Source of the DNA: Corynebacterium liangguodongii
Lineage (GTDB): Bacteria > Actinomycetota > Actinomycetes > Mycobacteriales > Mycobacteriaceae
DNA length: 64,000 nucleotides
NCBI RefSeq assembly: GCF_003070865.1
Contig: NZ_CP026948.1
Span: forward strand, 1,798,001 to 1,862,000
Reading direction: 5' to 3'
The notes beneath the pieces were generated by a model. That model saw only the letters and a program-made list of their open reading frames with translations, made no database searches and was not told where the DNA came from. This document shows positions 5,613 through 58,727 of the stretch, piece by piece. The position numbers were made by a program, and so were the translations under genes. Each line of letters opens with the position of its first letter. The stretch's first letter is position 1.

Positions 5613-6887
5613 CTAGGCAGATTTCTTCGTCTTCTCTGAGACGTACTCCGGCTCCGCCTCCCCGCGGACGACCTCGGCGGTGATCACCACGGCGGTGACG
5701 TCCTCGCGGTCCGGCAGCTCGTACATCACGGGCACGAGGATTTCCTCCATGATCGCGCGCAGGCCGCGGGCGCCCGTTTTGCGTATCGACGCCCGATCGG
5801 CGATCTCCCCGAGCGCGTCATCATCAATCCGCAGCTCCGCACCGTCCATGGCAAAGAGCTTCGAATACTGTTTGACCAGCGAATTCTTCGGCTCCTTGAG
5901 CACCCGCACGAGGGAGTCGCGGTCGAGGTCTTCGACGTTGGCCAAAATCGGCAGGCGCCCGATGAACTCCGGGATGAGCCCGAACTTCACCAGATCGCCC
6001 GGCTGCACCTGGGCCAGGAGGTTCGATTCCTCGCGCTCGGATTTCGAATCGATCTCGGCGCCGAAACCAATGCCCTTCTTGCCCACCCGCTCCGCGATGA
6101 CCTTATCCAATCCCGCAAAGGCACCCGCGACGATGAACAAGATGTTCGTGGTATCGATCTGGATGAACTCCTGGTTCGGGTGCTTGCGCCCGCCCTGCGG
6201 CGGGACCGAGGCGACGGTGCCCTCGAGGATCTTCAAAAGCGCCTGCTGCACTCCCTCGCCCGAGACGTCGCGGGTGATCGAGGGGTTTTCGGACTTGCGC
6301 GAGATCTTGTCCACCTCGTCGACGTAGATGATGCCGTGTTGGGCGCGCTCGACGTCAAAATCTGCCGCCTGCAAGAGCTTGAGCAGGATGTTTTCTACGT
6401 CCTCGCCCACGTAGCCCGCCTCCGTCAAGCTGGTGGCGTCCGCGATGGCAAACGGCACGCCCAGCATCCGCGCCAGGGTCTGCGCGAGGTAGGTCTTCCC
6501 GGAGCCAGTCGGGCCGAGCAGCAAGATGTTCGACTTCGCAATCTCGACGTCTTCCTCCCGCCTGCTCTTGCGCCAGCTGCTCACCCCGCGGGTGCGCTTG
6601 TAGTGGTTGTAGACGGCAACGGCCAGGGTGCGCTTGGCCGTGTCTTGGCCAATGACGTACTGATCGAGAAAGGCGACAATCTCGCTCGGCCGGGGAAGCT
6701 TCTCGCCGTCGCGGGCATCGGCGTCCTCGGACCCTACGAGCTCCTCTTCGAGGATCTCGTTGCACAGCTCGATGCACTCGTTGCAGATGTAGACCCCACC
6801 GCCCGCGATGAGCTTGCGCACCTGCTTTTGCGGCTTGCCGCAAAACGAGCACTTAAGCAGGTCGGATGAGTCCTGGGTGACTGCCAT
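5613..6887 (-). CDS. clpX: ATP-dependent Clp protease ATP-binding subunit ClpX
   Basis: ClpX is the hexameric AAA+ unfoldase that feeds proteins to ClpP1P2. The 424 residues contain the zinc-binding domain (Cys13, Cys16, Cys35, Cys38), Walker A GPTGSGKT (125-132), pore loop GYVG (158-161), Walker [10 protein letters not shown] (186-194), and the IGF loop that docks on ClpP. ATG at 6887 gives the standard [13 protein letters not shown] start; an upstream in-frame ATG would add 24 residues not typical of ClpX. The coding strand carries one copy of an over-represented 11-mer (5781-5791 on the plus strand) that forces the rare codon ATA for Ile in ASIRK. Confidence 0.97.
5781..5791 (+). repeat. 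First of ten copies of the dispersed 11-mer GCGTATCGACG
   Basis: Exact copies on the plus strand: 5781-5791, 22411-22421, 25038-25048, 37408-37418, 43955-43965, 51328-51338, 57818-57828. On the minus strand: 32675-32685, 39854-39864, 43766-43776. All lie inside genes, in sense and antisense orientation, in three different codon phases. The following bases are usually CC. Function unknown; see findings. Confidence 0.8.
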
Positions 6888-6943
6888 GAGGGTTGAGCGC
6901 TCCCATCTAGATGAAAATTCGGCGACTTCGTCAGGTCTGGATA

Positions 6944-6972
6944 AGTGTAGTATCTCCACCGTCTCACGGCGG
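6944..6972 (-). promoter_or_regulatory. Candidate clpX promoter with an imperfect palindrome
   Basis: On the minus strand TACACT (6944-6949) is a plausible -10 box. Just upstream lies the imperfect palindrome CCACCGT-ctc-ACGGCGG (6956-6972), in the position of a -35 box or an operator. The regulator, if any, is unknown; the motif does not match the ClgR site seen before clpP1. Confidence 0.35.
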
Positions 6973-7064
6973 TAGCGGTTTTACCAACGTAGCCGAGGCG
7001 CCCGACATTCCGGCGCGGATAAGGCAACAATGGGGTGGCACGCACATCTCAAGGAGGAAACACG

Positions 7065-7850
7065 ATGCAACCGGTCCGCCTGTACGCAGAAGAATTCGGT
7101 GGTGCGCCCCACGGGGCGTCGCCACGCACCGTCGTCTTGCTCAGCTCTATCGCCACCACCCTCGAGACCTGGCGCAACCAGGCCCCGGCGCTCGCTGAGA
7201 CCCATCGCGTCATCGCCCTCGATCACCTGGGCCACGGGCGTTCGCCGCGCTCCCAGGCTGCGCCCGGGGAGACCACCGTGGATGATCTCGCCGCCAACGT
7301 CCTGGCCACGCTCGACGGGCTCGGCGTGGAGCGCTTCAGCCTCGTAGGCCTCTCCCTCGGCGGCGCGCTGGCGCAGTACCTCGCTGCGACCTCGCCGCGC
7401 GTCGAGCGGGCGGTATTCTGCTCCACCGCGGCGTTCCTCGGCGGCCCGCAGCGCTGGGTGGAGCGCACGAACATCGCGCGCAGCGAGGGCATGGCCGCGC
7501 TTGCCGACGACATGGTGGCCAACTGGTTCACCGCAACCTACCGCGCCGAACACCCGGACATCGTCTCTTGGGTCCGCGAGATGATCCGCGGCATTGACGC
7601 CGAGGGATTCGCCCAAAACGGCGACGCGCTCGCCGGCTGGGATTTCGCTTCCCGCCTGGGCGAGATCACCTGCCCCGTGCTCACCATTGCCGGTGCCGGC
7701 GACCCCTCGACCGGCCCGGAGCAGCTTGCGGAGATTGCGTCGGGCGTGGCCGGGCCGGTCGAATCAGTCGTCGTCACGCCTGGCTCGCACCAGCTCGCGC
7801 TGGAAAACCCCGAGCCCTGCACCGCGGCGCTCGTGGAGTTTTTGGCCTAG
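7065..7850 (+). CDS. Alpha/beta hydrolase, 3-oxoadipate enol-lactonase-like
   Basis: A 261-residue single-domain alpha/beta hydrolase. The nucleophile elbow GLSLGG puts Ser97 as nucleophile; [10 protein letters not shown] (about 206) and [12 protein letters not shown] (about 240) supply the likely acid and His. The segment [31 protein letters not shown] resembles PcaD. No other protocatechuate-pathway gene is present, so the substrate is uncertain. ATG at 7065 follows AAGGAGG. The stop overlaps the clpP2 stop head-on by sharing CTAG at 7847-7850. It is divergent from clpX. Confidence 0.8.
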
Positions 7851-8467: not shown

Positions 8468-8488
8468 GTTAGTAGTCTCCTGTCCTGC

Positions 8489-9082: not shown

Positions 9083-9157
9083 GTTGGCTCCTTGTACGTA
9101 AAAAGCGTTAACGGTCAATGCCACCACACTACTAGCCGGTTTCGGCCACGGACACCG

Positions 9158-9175
9158 TGTTCGCTGTGGGCGTAC
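9158..9175 (+). promoter_or_regulatory. Candidate ClgR operator upstream of clpP1
   Basis: TGTTCGCTGTGGGCGTAC agrees with the corynebacterial ClgR consensus as I remember it (WNNWCGCYNANRGCGWWS) except for one central base. ClgR is known to activate clpP1P2 in C. glutamicum. The site is 76 nt before the clpP1 start. The match is by eye. Confidence 0.5.
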
Positions 9176-9199
9176 TTCGCTCTCCCCCGCCTGCACAAG

Positions 9200-9604: not shown

Positions 9605-9619
9605 GAAGGGGCTCATCCC

Positions 9620-10987
9620 CTAGCTTTCGGAGTCCTGCGCGGACTCGGCATCGTCGGCGCCATCCTCGACCTCACCGAAGTACTCGTTCGGGTCGACAGA
9701 GTTGCCCTCCGAGTCGGTCACAGTGGTGCGCGAGATCGCGGCGGCGAGGGCCTTGCCGCGGCGGACGTCGGCAAACAGGTTAGCAATCTGGCCGGACTGC
9801 TGCAGCTGCATAACAAACTGGTTGGGGTCCATACCGTAGGACTGCGCGGTAAACAGGATGTGGTCGGTGAGCTCCTGCTGGGTCACCTCCGGCTCCTCCT
9901 GCTCGGCCACAGCGTCGAGGAAGAGCTGCGTGCGCACAGACTCCTCGGCCTGGCTGCGAGTCTGGGCATCGAACTCCTCGCGGGTGGTGCCCTGAGCCTC
10001 GAGGAGCTGGGCAAGCGCGTTTTCGTCGTGCGCGAGCTGGCCGAGTAGCTGGTGGACCTGGTTGTGCGCCTGCTCGTCGACGACGGATTGGGGCAGCTCG
10101 AAGGAGGTCTGCTCGAGGGCAGCCTTGAGCACCTCGTCGCGGATGGCGACGGCCTGCTCGGACTTCTTCGACTCCTCAAGCTGGGACTTCGTGCCCTCGC
10201 GCAGCTCCTCGACGGTGTCGAACTCGGAGGCCATCTGCGCGAAGTCGTCGTCAAGCTCGGGCAGGGTGCGCTCCTTGGTCTGCTGGACGCGGACCTTGAC
10301 GGTCGCCTCCTCACCCTTGTGGTCGCCGTGCTCGATGGTGGCGGTGAATTCCGCCTCGTCGTCGGCCTTGAGCCCCTTGATTGCCGCGTCAAGGCCCTCG
10401 ATGAGGTCGCCGGAGCCAACCTCGTATGACAGACCCTCGGTGGTGGCCTCGTCGATGGTCTCCCCGTCGATCTCGGCGGTGAGGTCAATGACGGCGAAGT
10501 CGCCCTTCTTGAGCTTGCGGGAGGTTTCCTTGAGCTCGCCGAAGCGGGAGCGCAGGTTGTCGATCTCGGCGTCGATTGCGGCATCGTCAATCTCGATGGC
10601 GGGAACCGTGACGGAGATGGCGGAGAAATCCGGCACCTCGATGGCAGGGCGGACGTCGACCTCCGCGGTGAACTCGACGACGTCGTTATCCTCGATCTTG
10701 GTGATGTCGATCTGCGGCTGGCCGATCGGCTTGAGGTCATGCTCCTCTACCGCCTGCTCGTAGCGAGACGGCAGCATGTCGTTGACAACCTGCTCGAGGA
10801 GCGGGCCGCGGCCGAAGCGGGCGTCGATAAGCTGGCGCGGAGCCTTGCCGCGGCGGAAGCCCGGGATCTGCACCTGCTGGGCGATCGCCTTGTACGCCTG
10901 GTCGATCTCAGCCCCAAGCTCGTCGAACGGGACGTTGACGGTGAGCTTGACGCGCGTATCGCTGAGCTTGTCAACGGAAGTCTTCAC
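9620..10987 (-). CDS. tig: Trigger factor
   Basis: This ribosome-bound chaperone with peptidyl-prolyl isomerase activity is 455 residues. The N-terminal ribosome-binding domain carries the GFRRGKAP signature (about residues 43-50). A central FKBP-like domain covers about 150-245, followed by the long helical chaperone arms. The C-terminus ends in an acidic tail ([10 protein letters not shown] type), common in corynebacteria. Start GTG at 10987 follows AGGAG. It is monocistronic between tRNA-Pro and its own terminator. Confidence 0.97.
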
Positions 10988-11144: not shown

Positions 11145-11157
11145 TATCCGGCCTCGC

Positions 11158-11725: not shown

Positions 11726-12505
11726 GTGCTCATCATTCTCCTCCTCGTCCTTATCGCCGCAGTCGTCTTCGCGCTCAGCCGCTCCGGCGGCGGCTCCCGC
11801 AAGCAGCTCGAGCAAGCCCAGCTTGACGACGCCTTAGCGGACGCCAAGCGCTGGACCGATCGCCTCGGCTCCCAGGTGCTCACCCTCACGGGCAGCGATA
11901 CCGCGTCGTCCCAGGCGCTTGCCGACGCCTCCGAGCGCTTCACCGCCGCCTCCGCCGCCCTTAGCGACGCCCGCACGCCAGCCCAGGCCCGCCTCGCCCG
12001 CGAATCCGCCCTCGAGGGCCTCCACTATGTAGGAGCTGCCCGCGAGATCATGGGCCTGCCCGCTGGTCCCCCGCTGCCCGAGCTCGAAGGCCAGCGCCGC
12101 GCCGGCCGGGTGACCGAGGAACGCACCATTACCCAGGAAGACGGCTCCACCCTCACCGCCTCCCCGCACGCATCGTCGCAGACGCCGCATTACTACCCCG
12201 GCGGCGCCGTGGCCGGCCGCCCCGTCCCTGCCGGCTGGTACTCCTCCGCCTGGTGGGCCCCGGCCATGATGACCGGCATGTGGGCGACGAGCTCCATGAT
12301 GATGTACTCCGCCATGTTCGCCGGCATGGCCGGCACCCCTCCGGCCGAGGAATTCGCCGCGGGCGACTTTGGTGGCGAGGGCGCTGCGGATGCTGCCGGG
12401 GATCTAGGCGGCGACGGCGGCGAGGATGCCGCCGGGGACTTCGGCGGCGACTTCGGGGGAGATTTCGGCGGCGACGGCTTCGACTTCGGTGGATTTGATT
12501 TCTGA
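11726..12505 (+). CDS. Membrane-anchored protein with a Gly/Asp/Phe-repeat tail, unknown function
   Basis: About 259 residues. It starts with one hydrophobic anchor (residues 2-18, LIILLLVLIAAVVFALS), then an Ala/Arg-rich helical region to about residue 115, then a linker with Trp, Tyr and Met clusters (AWWAPAMMTGMW, SSMMMYSAMFAGM). The last 50 residues are almost only Gly, Asp, Ala and Phe, ending in repeated DFGG units. GTG at 11726 directly precedes the anchor and is preferred; an in-frame ATG at 11639 would read through the tRNA-Gly promoter. Corynebacteria have similar proteins with glycine-rich tails, but I know no function. Confidence 0.65.
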   Translation: MLIILLLVLIAAVVFALSRSGGGSRKQLEQAQLDDALADAKRWTDRLGSQVLTLTGSDTASSQALADASERFTAASAALSDARTPAQARLARESALEGLHYVGAAREIMGLPAGPPLPELEGQRRAGRVTEERTITQEDGSTLTASPHASSQTPHYYPGGAVAGRPVPAGWYSSAWWAPAMMTGMWATSSMMMYSAMFAGMAGTPPAEEFAAGDFGGEGAADAAGDLGGDGGEDAAGDFGGDFGGDFGGDGFDFGGFDF

Positions 12506-12714
12506 TCCCGCCCTTGTCGCCGGGCGGCGGTTGCAAGCAGTGAGTTCGCCGCGTGCAGGGTAAACCCCGACCACACTGACCCGTGGCAGCGGGTGGCTTA
12601 CCACTCTGCAGACACTAGCAGTGCGGAAGAACTCCCCGGGTCGTCGTCGGGTGGCGCCGGGGCGGTAGACTTTTGGCGTCGTCAAGCATAAAGGGCCAAG
12701 AATAAGGAGCCGCG

Positions 12715-13512: not shown

Positions 13513-14448
13513 ATGGCAGGCGAGATCCTCGTCGTCATCAACCCCACCTACGACGGCTCGCTCGACCCGGCCGCCGCGGAGCTTATCGGCGCCGCCGCCC
13601 AGGTGGGCACGCCCGTCGCGCTCACGCTCGAGCCCGCCCACGCAGACGGGCTCGGCGCGCTCGGCGCGCAGCGGGTGCTTACTGCCGAAGGGGCATCGCT
13701 TATCGACGCCACCGTCGCCGCGGCAGACCTCCTCTACCCCGACGCCGTCGTCGGGTCGCACTCGGTGCGCGGCCGCGACGCCGCTGCCCGCGTGTCCGCG
13801 CGCTTACGCAGGGCGCTGCTTACCGACGCCGTGGGGCTGCGCCGCGACGACGAGGGAATTGTCACCGACCACTCCAACTACGGCGGGGCGTATACCGCGG
13901 TGGCCGCCGCGACGCACTCCGCGCCCGTTATCACCCTGCGCCCGGGGGCGGTGGAGCACCGCGCCCAGCCCGCTTCCCCGGCAGTGGAGGCGATCGACGT
14001 GGAGGCCTCCGGCAGGCGCGAAGTGAGCGTGGATAAGGTCACGCCGATCGAGCGCACGAGCACCCGCCCCGAGCTCGCCACCGCGGACAAGGTCGTCGCC
14101 GGCGGCGTCTCGCTCGGCTCGGAAGAGATGTTTGAGGAGCTCGTCGGCGGGCTTGCCGACGCCCTCGGTGCCGCCGTCGGCGCGACCCGCTCCGCCGTCG
14201 ACGAGGGCCAGGTCCCCTACGAGGCGCAGATCGGCCAGACCGGCGTGGTCGTGGCCCCGAAGCTCTACATCGGCCTCGGCATCTCCGGGGCGATCCAGCA
14301 CCTCGTGGGCATGCAGACCGCCGAGACCATCGTGGCCATCAACAACGACGCCGACGCCCCGATCTTCGAGCTCGCCGACTTCGGCATCGTCGGCGACATC
14401 TTCGACCTCGTGCCCGCCATCATCAGCGAACTCAACGCCAGGAAGTAG
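13513..14448 (+). CDS. etfA: Electron transfer flavoprotein, alpha subunit
   Basis: EtfA carries the FAD of the EtfAB dimer. The 311 residues end with the conserved FAD-binding domain: [14 protein letters not shown] (about 197-210), [10 protein letters not shown] (about 222-231), [19 protein letters not shown] and the [17 protein letters not shown] stretch (about 244-280). The start ATG abuts the etfB stop without a gap, so the subunits are translationally coupled. The next gene, a membrane cytochrome, begins 7 nt after the stop and may be the electron acceptor. Confidence 0.95.
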
Positions 14449-14455: not shown

Positions 14456-15853
14456 ATGCAGATCCCGCTTCGCCGTGGTCTCCCCCGCGTTCCCGCTGGC
14501 GAGCCCTGGCCGCCGGCCGGATCGTTCGTCGAGCTAGACGTCCCAAACGAAGCCCCGCGCAGTCCCCTCAACGAAGCCCCCGCGGGCGACCTCGCCGCGG
14601 TGGCGGTGCGCCAGGGTTTGCCGCGTACCCCGGGCGGGGCGGCGTTCCCGCCCGTCGACGTCGTCATGTTGCCGCTGCCCGCGGCGGCCGCGGGTGCCAC
14701 GGCCGCCGAATCGGACCAGACCAGTGCCGCCCCCGCGGGCGAGCTCACCGCGGTGGCGGTGCGCCAGGGTTTGCCGCGCACCCCGGGCGGGGCGGCGTTC
14801 CCGCCCGTCGACGTCGTCAAGCTGGCGCTGCCCGCGGCGGCGCTCAAGGGCCGCGAGGACGAAACCGCCCAGCCGGAGGCGGAGACCCCCTCGACGCGCG
14901 AGCCGAGGGCAGCGCAGAGCCCGGCCCCCGGGGCCCAGCCCACGCAACCGGGCACCGCCCGCCCCGGGCGCCTGGCCGCTTGGGCGGCCGCGGCATTATC
15001 GGCGGGTTTCGCCTTCGCCATGGCCGTCCTCTTCGCCCGCTACCTCGTGAGTACCGAGTGGGGCGAGGGATTTACCACTCGCTTCGACGGGCGCCAGCCA
15101 CTGCCCGCCGGCGCACCTGTCGGCCTGCCCGCGTGGCTGAACTGGGCGCACTTCTTCAACATGTTCCTCATGGTGCTCGTCATCAAGACAGGCCTGAGCG
15201 TGCGCCGGGAGCGCCGACCCGAGGCGCTGTGGGCGCCGCGGGGCAACCCGCGCGCGAAGATCTCGCTGACGCTGTGGCTCCATCTCGCCCTCGACATCGC
15301 GTGGGTCGCACTCGGCGCGGTGTTCTACGTCCTGCTCTTTACCACCGGGCAGTGGGTGCGCGTCGTGCCGACGAGCTGGGAGGTCTTCCCCAACGCTCTA
15401 TCCGCCGGGCTGCAGTACCTCACGCTGCACTGGCCCGCGGACAACGGCTGGGTGCACTACAACGCCTTGCAGGAGCTGACCTATTTCGCGGTGATCTTCC
15501 TCGCCGCCCCGCTGGCGATTGTCTCCGGGGCGCGGATGAGCCCGGTGTGGCCGAAGGGCTGGACGTTTATGCCGGTCTCGGCGGCGCGCGCGATCCACTT
15601 CCCCACCATGATCTTCTTCGTGGTCTTCATCGCCAGCCACGTCGCCTTGGTGGCGCTGACGGGGCTGCGGCGCAACCTCAACGCGATGTTCGCCGCGCGT
15701 GGCAGCGTCGACCCGGCGGCCTACGCGACCGACTGGACCGGCACGATCATCTTCCTTATCGCCCTCGCGGTTGTCGCCCTCGGCGCGTTCGCGGCGCGGC
15801 CGGTCTTCATCGCCCCGCTGGCGCGGCTGACCGGCACCGTGTCCAACCGCTAG
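14456..15853 (+). CDS. Cytochrome b-type membrane protein with triplicated GLPR motif
   Basis: A 465-residue protein. Residues 1-165 are cytosolic-looking and contain three copies of a motif of the form R-(R/Q)-GLPR-x-P-(A/G)-G...PP at residues 6-21, 52-67 and 103-118. Then come about six membrane spans (near 175-195, 225-245, 275-300, 340-360, 380-403, 430-450) with His residues in hydrophobic spans ([35 protein letters not shown]) fit for b-haems, as in the cytochrome b561/Ni-Fe-hydrogenase b family. ATG at 14456 follows AGGAAG 7 nt after etfA. It probably takes electrons from EtfAB, by inference from the operon. The stop shares CTAG with the next, convergent gene. Confidence 0.75.
14582..14843 (+). 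repeat. Direct repeat inside the cytochrome b gene (two copies of about 109 bp, 153 bp apart)
   Basis: 14582-14690 and 14735-14843 are nearly identical; the core 14600-14671 differs from 14753-14824 at one base. The offset is 51 codons, so the duplication is in frame and gives motif copies 2 and 3. The first, more divergent motif copy near 14470-14520 is not part of this recent duplication. Confidence 0.8.
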
Positions 15854-17637
15854 GCCCTCGCCTCGCCGGTGCGGCGCCACGAGCCGTCGACACGCTCGAT
15901 CGCTCCTGCCTCCGCGAAGGCCTCGAGCCAGCCCTCCATCGGATACGTGCCCCACTTCGAGCGGAAGTACTCGGCGTTGTTGACGATGTCGTCGAGGTGC
16001 TCCCACGGCGGGGAGGAGACTGGGTGGTGCTGGTGGAAGGCGTGGGCGCCACCGACCCAGTACAGGGCGATCCCGTGCGCGGCAAGGTTGCGGGCGAAGT
16101 CGGTGTCTTCCCCGCCGTAGCCGGTATAGCCGGTGTCGAACCCGCCGAAGTCGCGCTCGATGCGCTCCCACGTCTGCGCGCGCATGCCAAAAGAGAGCGA
16201 CCAGAACAGGTTGTATTCCTGCGCCGCTATCACCTCGCCCGGCGCTGGGTTGGGCCGGGCCGGGTGCGGGTCGGGTTTCACCGTGCGCAGCTCGCCGGGC
16301 GCCATGTAGGTCACGGGCCCGGCGACCACCGCGTCGGGGTGATTCGCTAGCGCCCGGCAGTAGTATTCCACCAGCTCACCCGAGCACACGCAGTCGGCGT
16401 CGAGGAAGACCAGCACGTCCGCGCCGCGCTCGATGGCCGTGCGCGCGCCGAGGTTGCGGGCAGCGGCAAGGTTGCGGGTGCCCGACACGACGTGGGACTT
16501 CGGCACGGCCTTGCGCAGCACAGGGGCGTCGGCAAGCGCCACGGTGACATGGTCGGTGCCCTCCGGCTTGAGGTTGACCTGGTGGGTGAGGTGGGCGGCG
16601 CGGGAGGAATCGGCGAGGGAGACCAGCGCGATCGAATCCGGCCGCGCCCCGCCAGCGACCTCGGAGATCACCCGCGCCGCGCGCTGGGCCGCGCCCGCGG
16701 TCTCCCAGCGCGACCAGTCGGGCCGCAGCCGCCCCGCGCGCTCGAGCAGCTCCGGCCACTGCGCGGGCGAGGGAAAGGACTCCGCGACAACGGCAAGGCC
16801 GGCGCGGGCGAGCTCGCGGGCGGTGGCCTTCTGCTCGATGAACGGCCGCGGCTGCGGCAGGACGACCGCCGGCGCACCGGCGACGGCGATATCCGCCACC
16901 GAGTTTTGCCCGCCCGCAATGACCGCCACCCCGGCGCGGGAGAGCAAGGCGGAGAGCTCCCCCGGGTCCTCGATCCGACTGTCCCCTGTGAGGAAGGTAA
17001 ACCGGTAGCCCGCGCAGGCGTTTTCCACCGCGTCGAAATCTTCCGGCTCCCAGGTCGACCCGCCGCGCCCCGCCATGACGACGACGTGGCGGGGGTCGCG
17101 CCCGCCGCCGGGCCCCGCACCGGGGGCGCGCTCAAGACGAGAGATGCCGCCGACGGCGTGCACCCGGTCGGCGTGCGGGCGCAGGTGCTCCGGCAGCGGG
17201 ACCCATCCCGGCCAGGCGGCGATGATCGCGTCGGCCTGGGTGTAGGCGAGCTGATGGGGGGCGTCGTCACGCAGGCCCGGCATGGCGAGGGTGATCACGG
17301 GCACCCCCATGAGCCGCACGAACGCCCCGACCTCCACCGAGACGTCGACGTAGAAGGCTTTCGGGTTGTACCGCTCGACCCAGGCCGCGATCTCGGCGAG
17401 GCGCTGGCGCAAACCCGGGTTGCCGTAGGGAGCGTAGTGCAGGCTCGCCCCGGCCGTCATCGCCCGGCCGTGGGGGCGCAGGTGCTCGTCCATGGCGTCA
17501 TCGGCAAGCACGACGTCCGCGCCCGGCGCGGTGGAGAGGATGGCGCTGTCCTCCCCCAGCTCCGCGAGCTGGCGCTGGATCTGCCTGCAGCGCTGGATGT
17601 GCCCGGCGCCGTGGTGGTGGGCGTAGATTCCGATCAT
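15850..17637 (-). CDS. Two-domain glycosyltransferase (GT28/MurG-like plus GT2)
   Basis: A 595-residue fusion. Residues 1 to about 330 form a GT-B domain like MurG/GT28: HHHGAGH near the N-terminus, GRGGSTWE in the middle, and the nucleotide-sugar site GGQNSVADIAVAGAPAVVLP. Residues from about 345 form a GT-A (GT2) domain with LAAARNLGAR, the metal-binding DADC near 413, and the GGED motif near 508. Such a protein could add two sugars in succession. ATG at 17637 overlaps the upstream stop as ATGA (17634-17637), so translation is coupled. It is the third gene of the leftward glycosyltransferase operon. Acceptor unknown. Confidence 0.75.
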   Translation of the reverse strand: MIGIYAHHHGAGHIQRCRQIQRQLAELGEDSAILSTAPGADVVLADDAMDEHLRPHGRAMTAGASLHYAPYGNPGLRQRLAEIAAWVERYNPKAFYVDVSVEVGAFVRLMGVPVITLAMPGLRDDAPHQLAYTQADAIIAAWPGWVPLPEHLRPHADRVHAVGGISRLERAPGAGPGGGRDPRHVVVMAGRGGSTWEPEDFDAVENACAGYRFTFLTGDSRIEDPGELSALLSRAGVAVIAGGQNSVADIAVAGAPAVVLPQPRPFIEQKATARELARAGLAVVAESFPSPAQWPELLERAGRLRPDWSRWETAGAAQRAARVISEVAGGARPDSIALVSLADSSRAAHLTHQVNLKPEGTDHVTVALADAPVLRKAVPKSHVVSGTRNLAAARNLGARTAIERGADVLVFLDADCVCSGELVEYYCRALANHPDAVVAGPVTYMAPGELRTVKPDPHPARPNPAPGEVIAAQEYNLFWSLSFGMRAQTWERIERDFGGFDTGYTGYGGEDTDFARNLAAHGIALYWVGGAHAFHQHHPVSSPPWEHLDDIVNNAEYFRSKWGTYPMEGWLEAFAEAGAIERVDGSWRRTGEARA

Positions 17638-19811: not shown

Positions 19812-20657
19812 ATGCCCACACTCACCGTCGTTGGCAACTGCCAGGCCGAATCCTTGCGCCGACTGCTCTCTAGCGCCGGCGGGTTCGACTCGAGGCGCAT
19901 TGCCCCCGTCCACGAGCTCGAGCGCGAGGACATGGGGTGGCTGGGTGAGCTGCTTGCGGGAACCGACGTCCTCGTGGCCCAGCCGATCCGCGATCAGTAC
20001 CGCGGCCTGCCGGTGGGTACCTCGCAGCTCATCGCACAACTCCCGCGGGGCGCGGTGAGCGTGATCGTGCCCGTGCTGCGTTTCGACGCCCTCATGCCTT
20101 ACCAGGCGATCATCCGCGACCCGGAAGATCCCTCGCTCAACCCTCCCGTCGTGCCCTACCACGACCTGCGGCTGCTGGCGGCCGCAGCGCGTGGGCGCGA
20201 CGCCGCGCTTCGCCCCCGCCCCACCCCGGAGGCACTGCGGCGCGCCCGGGACTACTCCATCGAGCAGATCCGCTCCCGCGAGCGGCGCCACGGCACGGTT
20301 GTGGTCTCCGATTATCTGGAGACCTCGCCCGTGTGGCACACCGTCAACCACCCGGATAACGCGACGCTGAGCGTGGCTGCTGGGCGAGTGCTTGCCGCGC
20401 TGGGGATCGACGCAGACCCGGTCGCGCCGGACTACGAGATGCTCGGCGAGCTCGACGCTCCCGTCGATCCGGAGGCCGCCGCGGCCCTCGGGGTGAGCGT
20501 CACCGGGCGCGACCGCTGGTTCCGCCGCGGGGAGGGGCCGTTGGCGGGAGACGAGATCGTCCACGCCCAGTTGGATTTCTACCGCGCCCGCCCAGCGCTG
20601 GTTGCGCACGGCATGCAGCGCCACGCCGAGCGCCTGTCGATGCTCGGGTTGGCCTAG
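19812..20657 (+). CDS. WcbI-like polysaccharide biosynthesis protein
   Basis: A 281-residue protein beginning with the WcbI signature VVGNCQAESLRRLL (residues 6-19). It also has a downstream NHPDN His/Asp motif near residue 180. WcbI-type proteins belong to a family of putative capsule acetyltransferases. ATG at 19812 is leaderless-like (TAGATT 7 nt upstream). First gene of the rightward half of the divergent cluster; it may modify the glycan made by the six enzymes. Substrate unknown. Confidence 0.7.
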   Translation: MPTLTVVGNCQAESLRRLLSSAGGFDSRRIAPVHELEREDMGWLGELLAGTDVLVAQPIRDQYRGLPVGTSQLIAQLPRGAVSVIVPVLRFDALMPYQAIIRDPEDPSLNPPVVPYHDLRLLAAAARGRDAALRPRPTPEALRRARDYSIEQIRSRERRHGTVVVSDYLETSPVWHTVNHPDNATLSVAAGRVLAALGIDADPVAPDYEMLGELDAPVDPEAAAALGVSVTGRDRWFRRGEGPLAGDEIVHAQLDFYRARPALVAHGMQRHAERLSMLGLA

Positions 20658-25020: not shown

Positions 25021-27401
<2,381 letters not shown>

Positions 27402-41690: not shown

Positions 41691-42000
41691 CACCGTCATC
41701 CACCCCATCAACCGCCTGAAGATCTGCGCGGCCTTAAGCGCCGGCGGCGCCACCGAAGGCGAGCTGCGCTACGAGATGCGGTTCTCTCGCCTCCGCGAGC
41801 TCACCAAGCTTAGCGACGCCACCTTGTCCAAGCAGCTCACCGCCCTAGAGGAGCACGGTTATATCACCCGTTTCCGGGAGTACGGCTCCACCCGGGCGAA
41901 AGACACCGTGTGGGTCACCTTGACGAAGAAGGGCAAGGAGGCTTTCGACTCCCACGTCGCCGCGCTGCGGGAGATCGCGGGGGAGGTGCCGCCCCCATAA
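41680..42000 (+). CDS. Winged-helix transcriptional regulator
   Basis: A 106-residue regulator of the MarR/ArsR-like HTH type (DUF4364/HTH_27 group). The recognition region is RELTKLSDATLSKQLTALEEHGYI (about 38-61), followed by the wing ITRFREYGSTRAKDTVWVTLTKKG. ATG at 41680 overlaps the membrane protein gene, so the two are translationally coupled and it probably controls its own operon. The signal is unknown. Confidence 0.8.
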   Translation: MPLDTVIHPINRLKICAALSAGGATEGELRYEMRFSRLRELTKLSDATLSKQLTALEEHGYITRFREYGSTRAKDTVWVTLTKKGKEAFDSHVAALREIAGEVPPP

Positions 42001-42046: not shown

Positions 42047-44180
<2,134 letters not shown>

Positions 44181-46051: not shown

Positions 46052-46711
46052 GTGTCGGAAGGAATCGCTCCGAAGGACAACCGCATCGTCTGGATCGACC
46101 TGGAGATGACCGGGCTCGACCCCGAACGCCACGTCATCGTCGAGGTCGCGGCCCTCGTCACGGATGCCGAGCTCACCATCCTCGACGAAGGCATCGACCT
46201 CGTCGTCCACGCCACCGAGGAGCAGCTCGCGGAAATGGACGAGGTCGTCGTCCAGATGCACAGCGACAACGGCCTGCTTGCGGATATCAAAGACTCGACC
46301 GTGAGCATCGAGGAAGCGGAGGAGGCGGTGTTAGGGCTCGTCGCCAAGCATTGCGACCCCGCCCACCCCGCACCGCTGGCAGGAAATTCGATCGCCACCG
46401 ACCGCTCGTTCATTCGTGCGCACATGCCGCGTCTCGACGCCGCCCTGCACTACCGCATGATCGACGTCTCCACCGTCAAGGAGCTCTCGCGCCGCTGGTT
46501 CCCCCACGCGTACTACAAGCAGCCAGCGAAGGGCATGGCGCACCGCGCGCTGGCCGACATCGTCGAATCGATCCGCGAGCTCGACTACTACCGTCGCGCC
46601 GTCTTCGTCCCCTCCCCGGGGCCCGATACTGAGGCCGCTTCCGCGGCATCAACCGAGGCGAGTGAGGCCTACCAGCGGTTTTTGCAAAAAGATGGTCACA
46701 TACTAAGCTAA
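46052..46711 (+). CDS. orn: Oligoribonuclease
   Basis: This 3'-5' exoribonuclease of the DEDDh family degrades 2-5-nt RNA and cyclic-di-nucleotide products. The 219 residues show WIDLEMTG (D16, E18), ATDRSF and HRALADI (third and fourth Asp and the His). The C-terminus is about 20 residues longer than in E. coli Orn and is Ser/Ala/Glu-rich. GTG at 46052 abuts the cmrA stop with no gap; RBS AGAAGGA lies in cmrA. Confidence 0.95.
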
Positions 46712-46953: not shown

Positions 46954-47883
46954 ATGAAAGCTATTGTCCAACATGAATTCGGGGGACCCGAGACGTTGCA
47001 GGTAGCCGAGGTCGACTCCCCTACCCCGGGGGCCGGCGAAGTTGTGGTCAAGGTCACCGCATCAACCGTCAACCCCTTAGACACCCTCATCCGCGAGGGC
47101 AAGGCTCTCAAGGAGTTCACCCCGCTGCCGTTCATCCCGGGCTGGGATGTCGCCGGTACCGTCGCTGAGGTCGGGGAGGGCGCGCCGTTTGAGCCCGGCC
47201 AGCGAGTCTTTGGCATGCCCCGCTTCCCCAAGCCAGGCAAAGCGCTCGCGGAGTACTGCGTGGTGGACGCGCGCAACCTCGCCGCGACCCCGGACTCGCT
47301 TAGCGACGCCGAGGCGGCCGCCCTGCCCATGGCCGGCATGACCGCGTGGCAGGCGTTCCACGACACCGTCGAGGTGAAGGAGGGCGAGAAGGTCCTCATC
47401 AACGGTGCAGGCGGGGGTGTTGGCCACCTCGCGGTGCAGATCGCGGCGGCGGCTGGCGCCACCATCACCGCGATCGCCAGCCCGAGCAAGCACGAGTGGC
47501 TGCGCTCACTGGGTGCTCACGAAGTTGTCGATTACAACGACGAGGCCGCGATGGCCGCCCTTGAGGGGTTTACCACCGCTTTCAACCTCGCGCCCGGCTC
47601 CTGGGTGCCCACGCTAGAGGCCGTCGCGCCCGGCGGGCACCTCATCACGATTAGCGGCGGCGCTGACGAGCTCAACGAGCGCGCCGAAGAGGCGGGGATC
47701 CACCACCACGTCACCTCTGTCAACACCCGTGACGAATGGTTGGCCGCCCTGGTCGACCTCGTTGAGGGCGGCAAGCTGCGCCCTCACATCTCGGCCACCT
47801 ACCCGCTCGAGCGCGCTGCCGATGCTCACCGTGAGCTCGACGAGGGCCACGCACAGGGCAAGATCGTCATCACCATCGGCTAG
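46954..47883 (+). CDS. Quinone oxidoreductase-like protein (MDR superfamily)
   Basis: A 309-residue zinc-independent medium-chain reductase. It has MKAIVQHEFGGPETLQV at the N-terminus, PGWDVAGTV (about 63-71) and the NADP(H) loop INGAGGGVGHLAVQIA (about 149-164). It reduces quinones or enals with NADPH. RBS AAAGGAAAAC precedes ATG at 46954. A monocistronic gene after the tRNA-His terminator. The substrate is unknown. Confidence 0.85.
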   Translation: MKAIVQHEFGGPETLQVAEVDSPTPGAGEVVVKVTASTVNPLDTLIREGKALKEFTPLPFIPGWDVAGTVAEVGEGAPFEPGQRVFGMPRFPKPGKALAEYCVVDARNLAATPDSLSDAEAAALPMAGMTAWQAFHDTVEVKEGEKVLINGAGGGVGHLAVQIAAAAGATITAIASPSKHEWLRSLGAHEVVDYNDEAAMAALEGFTTAFNLAPGSWVPTLEAVAPGGHLITISGGADELNERAEEAGIHHHVTSVNTRDEWLAALVDLVEGGKLRPHISATYPLERAADAHRELDEGHAQGKIVITIG

Positions 47884-50950: not shown

Positions 50951-51502
50951 ATGACCACTGCGCTTGTGATTGTAGACGTCCAGAACGACTTCTGCCCCGG
51001 CGGTACCCTGGCCACCTCGCGCGGCGACGAGGTGGCCAGGCACATCGCTGCACTCCTCTCCTCCAGCCACGGGTATGAGAGTGTCGTGGCCACGCAAGAC
51101 TGGCACATCGCCCCCGGCGCGCACTTCTCCCCCACTCCCGACTACGCCGATACGTGGCCCGTGCACTGCGTCGCCGGGAGCGAGGGCGCACGCCTCCACC
51201 CCGCCCTCGACGGGGCGGTCATCGACGCGGCCTTCCACAAGGGCGAGTACTCCGCCGCCTACTCTGGCTTCGAGGCGGGCCACGGCACCGCCTCGCTCGC
51301 GCAGTGGCTGCGCGATCAGGGCATCACGCGTATCGACGTCTGCGGCATCGCCACCGACCACTGCGTGCGCGCCACCGTCCTCGACGGCCTCAAGGAGGGT
51401 TTCGCCGTCACCGTGCTGGCCGATCTGTGTTCCCCTGTCGATGACGCGCGCGGGGCGGCAGCGCTCGACGAGATGCACGCAGCGGGGGCCGCCCTGGCAT
51501 AA
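50951..51502 (+). CDS. pncA: Nicotinamidase
   Basis: It deamidates nicotinamide to nicotinate in NAD salvage. The 183-residue protein has VDVQNDF (D9), the metal site DWHIAPGAHF (D52, H54, H60) and the catalytic Cys in GIATDHCVRA (about 140). Pyrazinamidase activity is usual in this family. ATG at 50951 has TAGCCT 7 nt upstream (leaderless); the frame is open 38 codons further up into tRNA-Lys. An 11-mer copy (51328-51338) encodes TRIDV. Confidence 0.95.
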   Translation: MTTALVIVDVQNDFCPGGTLATSRGDEVARHIAALLSSSHGYESVVATQDWHIAPGAHFSPTPDYADTWPVHCVAGSEGARLHPALDGAVIDAAFHKGEYSAAYSGFEAGHGTASLAQWLRDQGITRIDVCGIATDHCVRATVLDGLKEGFAVTVLADLCSPVDDARGAAALDEMHAAGAALA

Positions 51503-53518: not shown

Positions 53519-53544
53519 AGCGCCCCGCCTCCGGGCGGCGGCCC

Positions 53545-53916: not shown

Positions 53917-53931
53917 CGTCATTCTTTCACT

Positions 53932-54537: not shown

Positions 54538-55265
54538 CCGAGGGCCGCCCTCTGGGCGTCGATAAGCTGGCTGCAGCCCTTCTCCGCGACATCGAGCATC
54601 TCGCCGAGCTGCTCGCGGCCAAACAGGCCGTGCTCGCCCGTGCCCTGAATCTCAACGAAGTTGCCGCCCTCCGCCATGACGACGTTGAGGTCGACCTCCG
54701 CCCGCGAATCCTCCTCGTAGGGCAGATCGAGGGCCACGTGGCCATCAATTATCCCGACGGAGACCGCGGCGACCGGAGCGAGCAGCGGCTTGCCGGGCAC
54801 AACGCCGCGCTCGGTGAGGAAGGCGATCGCGTCCGCGAGCGCCACGTAGGCCCCGGTGATCGAGGCCGTGCGGGTGCCTCCATCGGCCTGCAGCACGTCG
54901 CAGTCGAGCTGGATGGTGTTCTCGCCGAGCTGGCTCAAGTCCACCGCCGCGCGCAGGGAACGCCCCACCAGGCGCGAAATCTCGTGCGTGCGCCCCTTGA
55001 CCTTGCCCTTCATCGACTCGCGCGGCATGCGCTCGTGGGTCGCCGACGGCAGCATCGCGTACTCAGCGGTCAGCCAGCCCTCCCCGGAATCCTTCTTAAA
55101 CCGCGGCACGCCGAGCTCAACGGAGGCGGTACACATCACGCGAGTTTTGCCGAACTCCACCAAGACGCTGCCGGCGGGGTGGTCGGTAAAGCCACGGGTA
55201 ATGCGCACCGGGCGCATCTCATCGAAGGCGCGGCCGTCGAGGCGGGTCAATCCTGAATCAGTCAT
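54531..55265 (-). CDS. rph: Ribonuclease PH
   Basis: This phosphorolytic 3'-5' exoribonuclease trims tRNA precursors. The 244 residues show [22 protein letters not shown], the active-site R-x-H-E-I-x-R region ([16 protein letters not shown], about 90-105) and [23 protein letters not shown] with the phosphate-binding GGTRTA. ATG at 55265; open frame upstream adds 14 residues without a ribosome site. The upstream neighbour is the MBL-fold gene. Confidence 0.95.
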
Positions 55266-55278
55266 GCCCGCCACAGTA

Positions 55279-56049: not shown

Positions 56050-56081
56050 GGGAACACCATGCCACGAATCCGCAGCGGAAT

Positions 56082-56879
56082 CTAACCCAACGCGCGGCCA
56101 ACAGCCGTAATCTGCGGCGCGAGGAAGCGCTCGGCGAGCCGGTTGAACACCTCCGGATCACCGGTGGACTCAAACACCCGGGTGGGCACGCTGCCTTCGG
56201 GCGCAGCAATGTCGCGCTCCGTGAGCACCCGCAAGACGTCCTTGGCCGTCTCCTCCGCCGAGGACACGAGCGTGACGTCATCGCCCATCGCGAGCTGGAT
56301 CACCCCGGTAAGCAGAGGGTAGTGGGTGCAGCCGAGCACGAGCGTATCCACCCCGGCCGCCTGCAGCGGTTCGAGATACCCCTGCGCGACACCGAGGATC
56401 TGGCGGCCAGAGGTCACCCCGCGCTCGACGAACTCCACGAAGGCCGGGCACGCCGCCGCCGTGACCTCGAGGCCGGGCGTGAGAGAGAACAAGTCTTGGT
56501 AGGCCCCCGAGGTGATCGTGCCCACGGTGCCGATCACCCCGACGCGCCCGTTGCGGGTGGTGGCAATCGCGCGCCGCACCGCGGGCTGAATGACCTCGAC
56601 GACGGGGACGCTGTAGCGTTCGCGCGCGTCGTGCAAAAACGCCGCGGTGGCGGTGTTGCATGCGATGACGATCATTTTGCACCCGCGCTCGACAAGCTCG
56701 TCAGCAATAGCCTGCGCGTGCGCGCGCACCGTGGCAATGCCGAGCGGGCCGTAGGGGCCGTTGGCGGTATCGCCGATGTAGATGATCGACTCGCCGTGGA
56801 GCTGGTCCATCATCGCCCGGGCGACAGTCAAGCCGCCGACACCAGAGTCGAACACCCCAATGGGAGCGGCATCAGGCAT
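56082..56879 (-). CDS. murI: Glutamate racemase
   Basis: It makes D-glutamate for peptidoglycan. The 265 residues show [14 protein letters not shown] (Asp11), [11 protein letters not shown], catalytic Cys in IACNTAT (about 75) and Cys in LGCTHYPLL (about 187). ATG at 56879 gives the standard start; open frame upstream would add 34 residues overlapping the rhomboid gene. It overlaps the upstream rhomboid stop by 8 nt. Confidence 0.95.
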
Positions 56880-57666
56880 ACCGCGGCCCCCTCCCCGTTT
56901 GGCGACGCGCCCGGCGCTCGCGCAGCTCCGGTGGATCGTCCGAGGTAATCGCCATGCCGGCGACGATGCCGCCGATCGCACCGAAGAGGTGGCCCTGCCA
57001 GCTCACGCCCTCGGTGCCCGGCAGCACGCCCCAAATCAGCCCGGAGTAGAAAAACCCTAGGATGACGCCGAGCGCGATCTGCTGCGCAGAGCGGTTGAAA
57101 AAGCCTCGCACAACGAGGTACGCCAACCACCCGTAGATCAGGCCCGAGGCGCCGATGTGGTTGGTGCCAATCCCGCCGAACACCCACGTCCCCAACCCGG
57201 CGATCACCGTGACTATGCCGGTGACCTCCCAAAACACCCTCGCCCCCGAGTAACCGATGAGGAAGCAGAAAATCGCCCCGGGGATCGAGTTGGAGATGAT
57301 GTGGCTCACATTCGCGTGCAGCAGCGGGGAGGTGAAGATAAGCAGCAGCGTGTTGGCGTCAAGGGGATGGACGCCGAAGGCCTTGAGCGCGCCGAGGAAG
57401 AAGACCTCGTTGACAATAAAGACCCCCCAGATCACGGCGAGGAAGCCGAAGGCGAAGCGGAACCCGCTCGCCCGCTTCTGCTTCGCGGTGAGCGCGTACT
57501 GGCTCGCGGGCGGGGCGAGGCGCCCCCCGCCTCGCCGCTGCGGCGGGGGCGCCCCGTATCCGGGACCGTATCCGGGGCCGACTCCAGGGCCATATCCAGC
57601 CCCGTAGGGCGCGCTACCGCGCGGGCGGCGCGGGCTGTTCGGGGGTAAGGGGTAGTTGCTCGTCAT
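56872..57666 (-). CDS. Rhomboid-family intramembrane serine protease
   Basis: A 264-residue membrane protein. Residues 1-45 are Pro/Gly/Tyr-rich ([19 protein letters not shown]), then six membrane spans. The active-site Ser is in [14 protein letters not shown] and the His in [26 protein letters not shown] precedes them. It corresponds to mycobacterial Rv1337. Substrates are unknown. ATG at 57666. Downstream murI overlaps by 8 nt. Confidence 0.88.
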
Positions 57667-57677
57667 CGCGGACAATC

Positions 57678-58727
57678 CTAGTGCGCATCGTGCCCGAGGG
57701 GTGCGACTCCTGCCAGGTCGGCCCAGGCCGTGACGCCGAAGTTCGTGGTGGCGGTGACGATGGCGTCGACAATCGCGCCCTGCACGGCCTCGGCGGCGGC
57801 CTCGCACGCCGCGCTCAGCGTATCGACGCCCTCTTCGCCCCCGCTCGTCGACACTGCCATCGGCGCTGCCATCGGCGCGGCCGTCGACACGGCGAAGAAC
57901 GTGTCACCGTCGAGCGGCGAGTGCGCCGGCCGCACCGCGCGGGCCAGCCCGTCGTGCCCCGCCATGGCAAGCCGCTTGAGCTGCGCGGGCGCGAAGGGGC
58001 AATCGGTGGCGATGAGCCCGATCGTGGTGTTGAGCTGTGGCGTCGGCTGGCTCAATGCACCCAGGCGCGCGGTATCGACGGGCGGGAGGCGGCAGTCTCC
58101 GTAGAGGCGCCCGGTGCCGGGATCGACGACGCTGCCGTGCGGGTTGGCCACCACCGCGGCCGCGACGCGATACCCGCTGCCCGGGCCCGCCAGCGAGACG
58201 CTGGCGGTGCCGAACCCGCCGCGCAGGACCCCGGCCGTGGCTCCGCAGCCGGCGCCGACGTTGCCCGAGTCCACCCCCGCCGGCTGGCCGAACGCCGCGC
58301 TCACCGCGGCGGCGCCGTCCGCGGGTCCGGGCCGGTGTGCCGCATCCCCCACGGCGAGGTCGAAGATCACCGCCGCGGGCACGATGGGGACCCGGGGCCC
58401 GGGCACGCCCTCGCCGAAGACCGGGAAGCCGATCCCGCGGGACTCGAGCTGGGCCATCGCCCCGTCGGCTGCGGCGAGCCCGAAGGCGGAGCCGCCGGTG
58501 AGCATGATCGCGTGGACGCGCTCGACCGTGTTGTGGGGTTCGAGAAGGTCGGTCTCGCGGGTACCGGGGCCGCCGCCCCGCACGTCGACGGCCGCGCACA
58601 ACCCCGCCGGGTCCTCTGACACGCAGGCGGTCACCCCGGTATCGCCGAGGCTGCGGTGCCCAATGAGTACGCCGGGGACCGTAAACGCGCCCCGCCGCGC
58701 GCTGGCGTGTGCTGAGTTCTGCGTCAT
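57678..58727 (-). CDS. P1-family peptidase (DmpA-like Ntn hydrolase)
   Basis: A 349-residue protein of the self-cleaving P1 family (DmpA/PhpA, Rv1333 in M. tuberculosis). GGGPGTRETDLLEP and HAIMLTGGSAFGLAAADG are N-terminal-subunit motifs; the cleavage site is before the Thr in LNTTIGLIATDCP (about 250), which becomes the nucleophile. ATG at 58727 follows GGGGGG with 3-nt spacing; an upstream start would add 12 residues. It is divergent from the UvrA paralogue. A copy of the 11-mer lies at 57818-57828. Confidence 0.85.
   Translation of the reverse strand: MTQNSAHASARRGAFTVPGVLIGHRSLGDTGVTACVSEDPAGLCAAVDVRGGGPGTRETDLLEPHNTVERVHAIMLTGGSAFGLAAADGAMAQLESRGIGFPVFGEGVPGPRVPIVPAAVIFDLAVGDAAHRPGPADGAAAVSAAFGQPAGVDSGNVGAGCGATAGVLRGGFGTASVSLAGPGSGYRVAAAVVANPHGSVVDPGTGRLYGDCRLPPVDTARLGALSQPTPQLNTTIGLIATDCPFAPAQLKRLAMAGHDGLARAVRPAHSPLDGDTFFAVSTAAPMAAPMAVSTSGGEEGVDTLSAACEAAAEAVQGAIVDAIVTATTNFGVTAWADLAGVAPLGHDAH

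What the first reader, a model, noticed from the sequence alone, without database searches (positions are those of the whole stretch)
5781..57828. An 11-bp motif, GCGTATCGACG, occurs ten times across the window
Exact copies: plus strand 5781, 22411, 25038, 37408, 43955, 51328, 57818; minus strand 32675-32685, 39854-39864, 43766-43776. With equal base use an 11-mer is expected about 0.03 times on both strands of 64 kb. Copies sit in unrelated genes (clpX, a glycosyltransferase, pepN, copD-ctaG, fadH twice, pncA, P1 peptidase, an unknown gene, an MFS gene) and in at least three codon phases: RIDA, SIR and VDT. In clpX and copD-ctaG the motif forces the codon ATA for Ile, which G+C-rich actinobacteria avoid, so protein selection does not explain it. 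Flanking bases are usually CC on the 3' side. Candidates: a chromosome-organisation or segregation signal, a DNA-uptake or methylation target, or a binding site of a nucleoid protein. It is not the parS or FtsK (KOPS) consensus I know.
Basis: partly seen in the sequence, partly recalled or inferred. Interest (0 to 1): 0.75.

Follow-up and report, generated by a model that had tools for sequence, protein, structure and literature searches.

The report
A thousand-copy self-tag in Corynebacterium DNA
The repeated 11-letter word is one spelling of a tag found about a thousand times in this bacterium's genome and, in lineage-specific spellings, in most Corynebacterium genomes examined; it looks like the DNA-uptake tags by which some bacteria recognise DNA of their own kind, though uptake itself has not been shown here.

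Summary
In detail: 10 exact GCGTATCGACG in the window (0.04 expected), 119 in the 2.36-Mb genome, 0 of the reversed word. It is one spelling of a larger motif, GCKTNNCGACGNC: 46 core copies in the window, 937 GCTTNNCGACG genome-wide (reversed control 74). The motif beats a codon-shuffled null, lies on both strands and in intergenic DNA, is not polar with replication, and is nearly saturating: in the context G|Leu|NNC|GAC|GNC the codon is CTT in 83% of 252 cases, against 8% of all Leu codons. Of 242 Corynebacterium genomes 173 have it at three times control or more; 14 carry over 400 GCTTNNCGATG, one has 1106 TGACGYCGCG, and about 55 have none of the three at those thresholds. None of 113 genomes from other genera of the family passes 2.6 times control. 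The one prophage stretch sampled nearly lacks it.

Best reading: a DNA-uptake-sequence-like self-recognition signal with dialects, probably read during uptake by the Tad/Flp pilus and ComEA/ComEC. The genomics are solid; uptake and the reader protein are inferred. Lineages with the machinery but no motif count against a simple link.

The parts
5781..5791 (+).
22411..22421 (+). GCGTATCGACG (copy 2), sense, LRIDA, glycosyltransferase-like gene (matches below curated cut-offs)
25038..25048 (+). GCGTATCGACG (copy 3), sense, SRIDA, pepN
32675..32685 (-). GCGTATCGACG (copy 4), sense, VRIDA, gene without NCBIfam match
37408..37418 (+). GCGTATCGACG (copy 5), antisense, gene 36217-38205 with a CopD-like part (below the curated cut-off)
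39854..39864 (-). GCGTATCGACG (copy 6), outside called genes
43766..43776 (-). GCGTATCGACG (copy 7), antisense, FadH/OYE-like gene (below the curated cut-off)
43955..43965 (+). GCGTATCGACG (copy 8), sense, TRIDD, same gene
51328..51338 (+). GCGTATCGACG (copy 9), sense, TRIDV, nicotinamidase (pncA)-like gene (below the curated cut-off)
57818..57828 (+). GCGTATCGACG (copy 10), antisense, gene without NCBIfam match
1011..1021 (+). GCTTGCCGACG variant
2756..2766 (-). GCTTGGCGACG variant
2945..2955 (-). GCTTTTCGACG variant
7117..7127 (-). GCGTGGCGACG variant
7499..7509 (+). GCTTGCCGACG variant
7769..7779 (-). GCGTGACGACG variant
10246..10256 (-). GCTTGACGACG variant
10822..10832 (-). GCTTATCGACG variant
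11821..11831 (+). GCTTGACGACG variant
11917..11927 (+). GCTTGCCGACG variant
12677..12687 (-). GCTTGACGACG variant, outside called genes
13698..13708 (+). GCTTATCGACG variant
13818..13828 (+). GCTTACCGACG variant
14151..14161 (+). GCTTGCCGACG variant
14812..14822 (-). GCTTGACGACG variant
15885..15895 (-). GCGTGTCGACG variant
16527..16537 (-). GCTTGCCGACG variant
17262..17272 (-). GCGTGACGACG variant
20078..20088 (+). GCGTTTCGACG variant
24434..24444 (-). GCTTTTCGACG variant
24836..24846 (-). GCTTAACGACG variant
26888..26898 (-). GCGTGACGACG variant
30142..30152 (-). GCGTGGCGACG variant, outside called genes
31572..31582 (+). GCTTGTCGACG variant
33143..33153 (-). GCGTGGCGACG variant
36294..36304 (-). 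GCGTGCCGACG variant
37262..37272 (-). GCTTTTCGACG variant
41808..41818 (+). GCTTAGCGACG variant
42940..42950 (+). GCGTGCCGACG variant
42998..43008 (+). GCTTGCCGACG variant
43391..43401 (+). GCTTTTCGACG variant
46339..46349 (-). GCTTGGCGACG variant
46429..46439 (+). GCGTCTCGACG variant
47298..47308 (+). GCTTAGCGACG variant
54557..54567 (-). GCTTATCGACG variant
59338..59348 (-). GCTTTTCGACG variant

Best explanation
The word is one spelling of a genome-wide self-recognition signal, GCKTNNCGACGNC, that works like the DNA uptake sequences of Neisseriaceae and Pasteurellaceae. Shown: a non-palindromic motif at about a thousand copies, on both strands, in genes and between them, not polar with replication, close to saturation at sites where a synonymous change can make it, with lineage dialects and near absence from a prophage stretch. 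Inferred: during natural transformation a sequence-specific DNA receptor on or near the Tad/Flp pilus or ComEA binds DNA carrying the species' dialect, ComEC brings one strand in, and recombination replaces chromosomal stretches. Fragments with the motif are taken up more often, so repeated uptake and recombination drive the motif up wherever the protein sequence allows. When the receptor's specificity shifts the motif follows, which gives dialects.
For: Copy number and sharpness: GCTTNNCGACG 937 in this genome, 74 for the reversed pattern. Its single-base neighbours sit at 0.3-2.1 times the codon-shuffled expectation, except G at position 3 (6.5x) and A at position 2 (4.4x); the motif itself is at 8x over all frames. 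DNA level: GCTT spellings without AT at 5-6 are in excess in sense frame 2 (192 against 10.7), sense frame 0 (3/0.1) and antisense frames 0 and 1 (6/0.3, 13/0.7); AT-centred spellings also in antisense frame 2 (17/1.3 and 26/1.6); intergenic 28 against 4.1. Near saturation: CTT in 83% of 252 (this genome), 84% of 90 (G033) and, in the GAT dialect, 89% of 110 (G001) eligible contexts, against 8-13% of all Leu codons. No replication polarity: 273 leading, 233 lagging; sense density alike in leading-strand genes (193 in 433 kb) and lagging-strand genes (135 in 288 kb). Dialects: GCTTNNCGACG at three times its control or more in 173 of 242 genomes, GCTTNNCGATG above 400 copies in 14 of 242, TGACGYCGCG at 1106 in 1 of 242 (control 27; all others at most 103); in line with a tree of 43 loci. 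Conservation when the needed residues are conserved: 61% of 349 and 66% of 137 windows, against 19% and 27% of control windows. Prophage stretch L046: 1 copy in 20 kb, mean 10.3. Machinery: ComEC in 241, T2SSE (CpaF family) in 239 (235 over the cut-off) and the DUF4244 Flp-like pilin in 238 of 242; a tad cluster and comEA-comEC in this genome. In Micrococcus luteus, another actinobacterium with comEA and comEC, tad genes are needed for transformation (PMC4322843, passages).
Against: The paper searches (listings only, 20 of 42 listed) showed no report of natural transformation in Corynebacterium, and no receptor is identified. The machinery is as universal in motif-free lineages as in bearers: G043, placed among bearers of the GAT dialect, has a complete-looking tad cluster and comEC but no motif in 100 kb or in the counts; G232, at the base of that group, has none of the three words above background. 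For GCTT spellings without AT at 5-6, antisense frame 2 shows no excess (21 against 18.7), which an orientation-free signal should show; it may be masked by a general shortage of GTC-NNN-AAG (92 against 219.5). Spacing is random, not even. Four of the eight comparable tad-locus sites of this genome are kept in no relative.
Confidence: 0.5

Rival explanations
1. A binding site of a chromosome-organising or nucleoid protein, scattered over the whole chromosome, whose specificity has drifted between lineages.
For: On both strands, genome-wide, intergenic as well as genic, sharply defined; near absence from a prophage stretch is also expected for recently arrived DNA.
Against: Spacing is random. 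A housekeeping architectural site would be expected to persist across the genus, yet the basal loci sampled and G043 lack it and G012 uses a different word. 83-89% saturation of eligible sites would need selection at about a thousand sites.
Confidence: 0.18
2. A Chi-like signal that turns a recombination nuclease (AdnAB or RecBCD type) from degradation to repair and so protects self DNA.
For: About a thousand copies, over-represented, nearly absent from a prophage stretch; Chi words differ between bacterial groups (recalled).
Against: Chi works in one orientation and follows replication (recalled); here the leading share is 54% (273 of 506) and sense density is alike in leading and lagging genes. 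11-13 bp is long for Chi (recalled). Presence of AdnAB was not checked here.
Confidence: 0.12
3. A mutational or gene-conversion bias (for example context-dependent repair) that creates the word without any reader.
For: Near saturation of synonymous sites in three genomes is what an attractor would give.
Against: No single precursor is specifically drained: in the same context CTC and CTG fall together, and most substitutions at the fixed positions stay near expectation. The bias would have to know about 10 positions over 13 bp and change with lineage.
Confidence: 0.1
4. A codon-pair, translation or mRNA-level signal (Leu/Arg-x-Asp-Ala with CTT or CGT).
For: Most copies are sense: 328 sense, 148 antisense, 30 outside genes; the GCTT spellings without AT are 192 in sense frame 2.
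Against: Excess in antisense frames 0 and 1, in antisense frame 2 for AT-centred spellings, and in intergenic DNA; dependence on bases outside the codons (the G before, the C at position 13).
Confidence: 0.04
5. A restriction-modification target or methylation mark.
For: Non-palindromic, sharply defined, varies between lineages.
Against: Restriction targets are usually avoided, not accumulated, and such systems change faster than a thousand sites could follow (general knowledge). No methylome could be examined here.
Confidence: 0.06

Closest known systems
DNA uptake sequence (DUS) of Neisseriaceae and its dialects (PMC3630211, abstract and author summary read)
   Same: Short non-palindromic word in very many copies, both orientations, dialects that follow phylogeny
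   Different: Actinobacterial genus with Tad/Flp pili instead of type IVa pili with ComP; uptake, transformation and a receptor not shown; two loosely constrained central bases; lineages without any word found
Uptake signal sequence (USS) of Haemophilus influenzae (about 1300 copies of AAGTGCGGT, passage in PMC5217627)
   Same: Similar copy number of a short non-palindromic word
   Different: Unrelated word; paired copies forming terminators, as in H. influenzae, were not looked for here
Tad/Flp-pilus-dependent natural transformation of Micrococcus luteus (PMC4322843, passages read)
   Same: Same phylum; ComEA, ComEC and Tad/Flp genes present here too
   Different: The term 'uptake sequence' does not occur in that paper's text; M. 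luteus has two tad clusters
HIP1 of cyanobacteria (recalled)
   Same: Highly iterated short word of disputed function
   Different: HIP1 is a palindrome; this motif is not, and it has lineage dialects
Chi and KOPS (recalled)
   Same: Over-represented oligomers scattered over the chromosome
   Different: Both are polar with replication; this motif is not

Membership tests
DNA uptake sequence / uptake signal sequence | Short word present about a thousand times or more, far above a codon-aware null | tested here: met
   937 GCTTNNCGACG, 119 GCGTATCGACG; codon-shuffled null on the 864-kb sample
DNA uptake sequence / uptake signal sequence | Occurs in both orientations without replication polarity | tested here: met
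   482 forward, 455 reverse; 273 leading, 233 lagging. Caveat: no excess in antisense frame 2 for GCTT spellings without AT
DNA uptake sequence / uptake signal sequence | Dialects between related species that follow phylogeny | tested here: met
   Three words; tree of 43 loci of three genes, with 11 CGACG bearers, 9 of the 14 CGATG bearers and G012; some nodes weak
DNA uptake sequence / uptake signal sequence | Host encodes a DNA-uptake pilus and ComEA/ComEC | tested here: met
   but equally true of motif-free lineages, and not shown to work in uptake here
DNA uptake sequence / uptake signal sequence | Scarce in phage or other foreign DNA | tested here: inconclusive
   One prophage stretch only: 1 copy in 20 kb, mean 10.3 of 20 stretches; Corynebacterium phages not examined
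DNA uptake sequence / uptake signal sequence | DNA with the word is taken up or transforms better than DNA without it | not testable with these tools
   Needs uptake assays
DNA uptake sequence / uptake signal sequence | A sequence-specific receptor (such as ComP) | not tested
   No receptor identified; tad-locus proteins only listed
Chi site | Orientation bias with replication | tested here: not met
KOPS (FtsK-orienting sequence) | Strong polarity from origin to terminus | tested here: not met
parS / matS type sites | Palindrome restricted to the origin or terminus region | tested here: not met
   The word is not a palindrome and is found all along the chromosome
HIP1 | Highly iterated palindrome | tested here: not met
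   The word is not a palindrome (sequence itself)

The most novel reading that the evidence does not exclude
Most Corynebacterium species have a DNA-uptake-sequence system of their own, with at least three dialects that sort the species into groups of DNA exchange, read by a Tad/Flp-pilus or ComEA-linked receptor. It would be, as far as I recall, the first such system in actinobacteria and would mean that natural transformation with kin recognition is, or recently was, widespread in a genus for which my searches showed no report of it.
Probability: 0.42. Interest if true: 0.92.

Novelty: new variant of a known kind. Interest (0 to 1): 0.78.

Why it matters
Uptake words are, as I recall, established only in two Gram-negative families. 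A thousand-copy, dialect-bearing word in most genomes of an actinobacterial genus would point to unnoticed natural transformation, say which species exchange DNA, and give a handle for transforming laboratory strains. Even if the function is another, a motif that holds 83-89% of eligible synonymous contexts in three genomes is a very strong, unexplained force on codon choice that codon-usage work on these genomes should take into account.

Tried and rejected
Codon or mRNA signal: looked likely at first, because the GCTTNNCGACG spellings are mostly sense in frame 2; given up after the antisense and intergenic excess.

Presence or absence of ComEC, CpaF or Flp pilin as an explanation of motif presence: rejected, all are near universal. 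One longer gene (349-409 aa) where most other loci have two T2SSF-sized genes marks 14 motif-free loci of a basal clade, but not the other motif-free lineages, so it is a clade marker at most; its domains were not tested.

A dialect of its own in every motif-free genome: found only in G012 (120 kb). G007 and G011 (140 kb each) and G043 (100 kb) gave no comparably strong word. G029, G131, G232 (40 kb each) and G207, G206, G227, G142 (20 kb each) gave none either, at low power: with 40 kb the known word is plain for G012 but weak for G000 and G001. The other motif-free genomes were not scanned for new words.

Even spacing: not found. Corynebacterium phages: the protein search found 21 among 1751 records but none in the 25 rows shown; not followed.

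Literature: searches gave no paper on such a motif in Corynebacterium by title, start of abstract or term hits (open-access library only; one search listed 20 of 42; the ten papers and the two were not opened). PMC5217627 was opened because it names Corynebacterium; in the passages read its Corynebacterium patterns are CRISPR repeats.


Full report
WHAT IS THERE. The window is bases 1,798,001-1,862,000 of a 2,357,924-base single-contig genome. Of 20 named loci returned for its CpaF protein the 15 best are from Corynebacterium (67-74% identity), so the host is a Corynebacterium; its species was not determined. The genome has 119 copies, 57 forward and 62 reverse, and none of the reversed word.

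THE REAL MOTIF. The common form is GCKTNNCGACGNC. Against a codon-shuffled null the single-base neighbours of GCTTNNCGACG lie at 0.3-2.1 times expectation, except G at position 3 (6.5x) and A at position 2 (4.4x), while the motif is at 8x; base 13 is C in 410 of 472 copies; at positions 5-6 TT and AT are favoured (21x and 18x) and CG, CA, CC hardly enriched (1.3-2x). The spaced sample gives 206 GCKTNNCGACG in 400 kb, about 1,200 per genome; the window has 46, of which 41 carry C13. The window's ten GCGTATCGACG exceed the genome rate (3.2), P about 0.002, but the window was picked for it.

NOT CODON USAGE. Genes were called with a simple script of mine (781 coding pieces, 83% of the sample). 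With synonymous codons shuffled inside each gene, GCGTATCGACG is expected about once per orientation and seen 29 (sense) and 34 (antisense) times. GCTT spellings without AT at 5-6 are in strong excess in sense frame 2 (192 against 10.7) and, in small numbers, in sense frame 0 and antisense frames 0 and 1 (3/0.1, 6/0.3, 13/0.7), but not in sense frame 1 (1/2.3) or antisense frame 2 (21/18.7). GCGT spellings without AT: 61/4.8 in sense frame 2, 22/0.9 in antisense frame 1, 21/11.6 in antisense frame 2, 2/7.2 in sense frame 1. AT-centred spellings are in excess in antisense frame 2 too (17/1.3, 26/1.6). Intergenic DNA has 28 against 4.1 from a third-order Markov model (some of it may be uncalled genes). 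In the context G|Leu|NNC|GAC|GNC the codon is CTT in 83% of 252 cases; in the matched context without the final G it is 10% of 136, and 8% of all Leu codons. CTC and CTG fall together in such contexts, so no single precursor is being converted.

NOT REPLICATION. The five parS words found in the sample lie at 2.32-2.34 Mb and the GC skew changes sign near 1.2 Mb. Leading and lagging strands hold 273 and 233 copies. Sense density is alike for leading-strand genes (193 copies in 433 kb) and lagging-strand genes (135 in 288 kb). That argues against KOPS and Chi.

DIALECTS. Over 242 Corynebacterium genomes GCTTNNCGACG ranges from 8 to 1,964 copies (reversed control 20-119); 173 have at least three times and 148 at least ten times their control, and summed over all genomes the two strands are equal (94,203 and 94,263). 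GCTTNNCGATG exceeds 400 copies in 14 of 242; 13 of these have fewer than 100 of the first word, G024 has both (1337 and 352); a few others have 150-230. A 400-kb sample of one bearer, G001, shows the same near saturation with GAT (CTT in 89% of 110). G012 has neither in excess but 1,106 copies of TGACGYCGCG (control 27), found by scanning 120 kb for any word; no other genome passes 103. About 55 of 242 have none of the three at these thresholds. Finer differences exist: base 12 is A in 73% of 252 copies in G033, while in G000 C is commonest (241 of 472). In 113 genomes of 30 other genera of the family the first word reaches at most about 2.6 times its control; their own words were not sought. 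On a tree of CpaF, a helicase and TopA from 43 loci (11 CGACG bearers, 9 of the 14 CGATG bearers, G012, 21 motif-free Corynebacterium, Williamsia) the CGACG bearers form one group and the CGATG bearers another that includes motif-free G043; G232, also motif-free, stands next to the latter with weak support; the remaining motif-free loci are basal, with G012 among them. Motif-free status was tested by word discovery with 100 kb or more only in G007, G011 and G043; for the others it rests on counts of the three known words or on small samples.

CONSERVATION AND FOREIGN DNA. In 17 tad-locus regions compared pairwise, when the needed residues are conserved the nine fixed bases are identical in 61% of 349 sense frame-2 and 66% of 137 antisense frame-2 windows (75% of 16 in antisense frame 1), against 19%, 27% and 19% of control windows. 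Where residues are not all conserved it is 26% of 1230, 19% of 466 and 3% of 155, against about 2%, and 0 of 16 in antisense frame 0; pairs are not independent. At the eight sites of this genome's tad locus that could be compared, the motif is kept in 0, 0, 0, 0, 2, 3, 3 and 6 of 7-15 relatives, so single sites do turn over. The spaced stretch with the fewest copies, L046 (1 in 20 kb; mean 10.3), holds phage genes: tape measure, minor tail proteins and endolysin in 5 of 6 proteins tested, the sixth a UDP-glucose dehydrogenase.

MACHINERY. This genome has CpaF (T2SSE), two T2SSF proteins, a DUF4244 Flp-like pilin, a small protein without Pfam match that I call TadE-like by position, and a Tad/TadG-like protein in a row, and elsewhere comEA-comEC. 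ComEC, T2SSE and DUF4244 occur in 241, 239 (235 over the cut-off) and 238 of 242 genomes, so they do not separate bearers from non-bearers. In M. luteus deletion of tad genes abolishes transformation, tadB excepted (PMC4322843, passages). Fourteen motif-free loci of a basal clade have one gene of 349-409 aa where most other loci have two, which recalls the fused tadB/C that the same paper describes in M. luteus tad-2; its domains were not tested and the meaning is open.

INTERPRETATION. A sharply defined, thousand-copy word on both strands with lineage dialects, held wherever proteins permit and nearly absent from a prophage stretch, is what uptake-sequence systems produce (dialects: PMC3630211, abstract). 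That is why I rank uptake first, at 0.5. What is missing is any sign of transformation in the genus, a receptor, and a gene that goes with the motif. A nucleoid or Chi-like role stays possible. The missing antisense frame-2 excess for GCTT spellings without AT is not fully explained.

Noticed in passing
G000 2110001-2130000 (L046): Prophage stretch with tape-measure, minor tail and endolysin genes next to a UDP-glucose dehydrogenase gene; almost free of the motif.
   Followed up: partly
864-kb sample of G000: Very strong codon-pair bias apart from the motif: CTG-CGC 858 against 346 expected, CTC-CGC 87 against 504; at two codons' distance CTC..AAG 67 against 248 and GTC..AAG 92 against 219.
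   Followed up: no
G000 2320001-2340000 (L048): Five copies of the parS word (name recalled) TTTCACGTGAAA, marking the origin side.
   Followed up: no
L029-L048 sample: Two further repeated words, GAGATGTCACA (15 against 0.2) and CAGAGTCCCTG (9 against 0.1), not like the motif; not examined.
   Followed up: no
L132-L145 (basal Corynebacterium clade): One gene of 349-409 aa stands where most other loci have two T2SSF-sized genes.
   Followed up: partly
G058, G037, G106: GCTTNNCGACG is below its reversed control (8 against 61, 20 against 73, 26 against 68), as if avoided.
   Followed up: no
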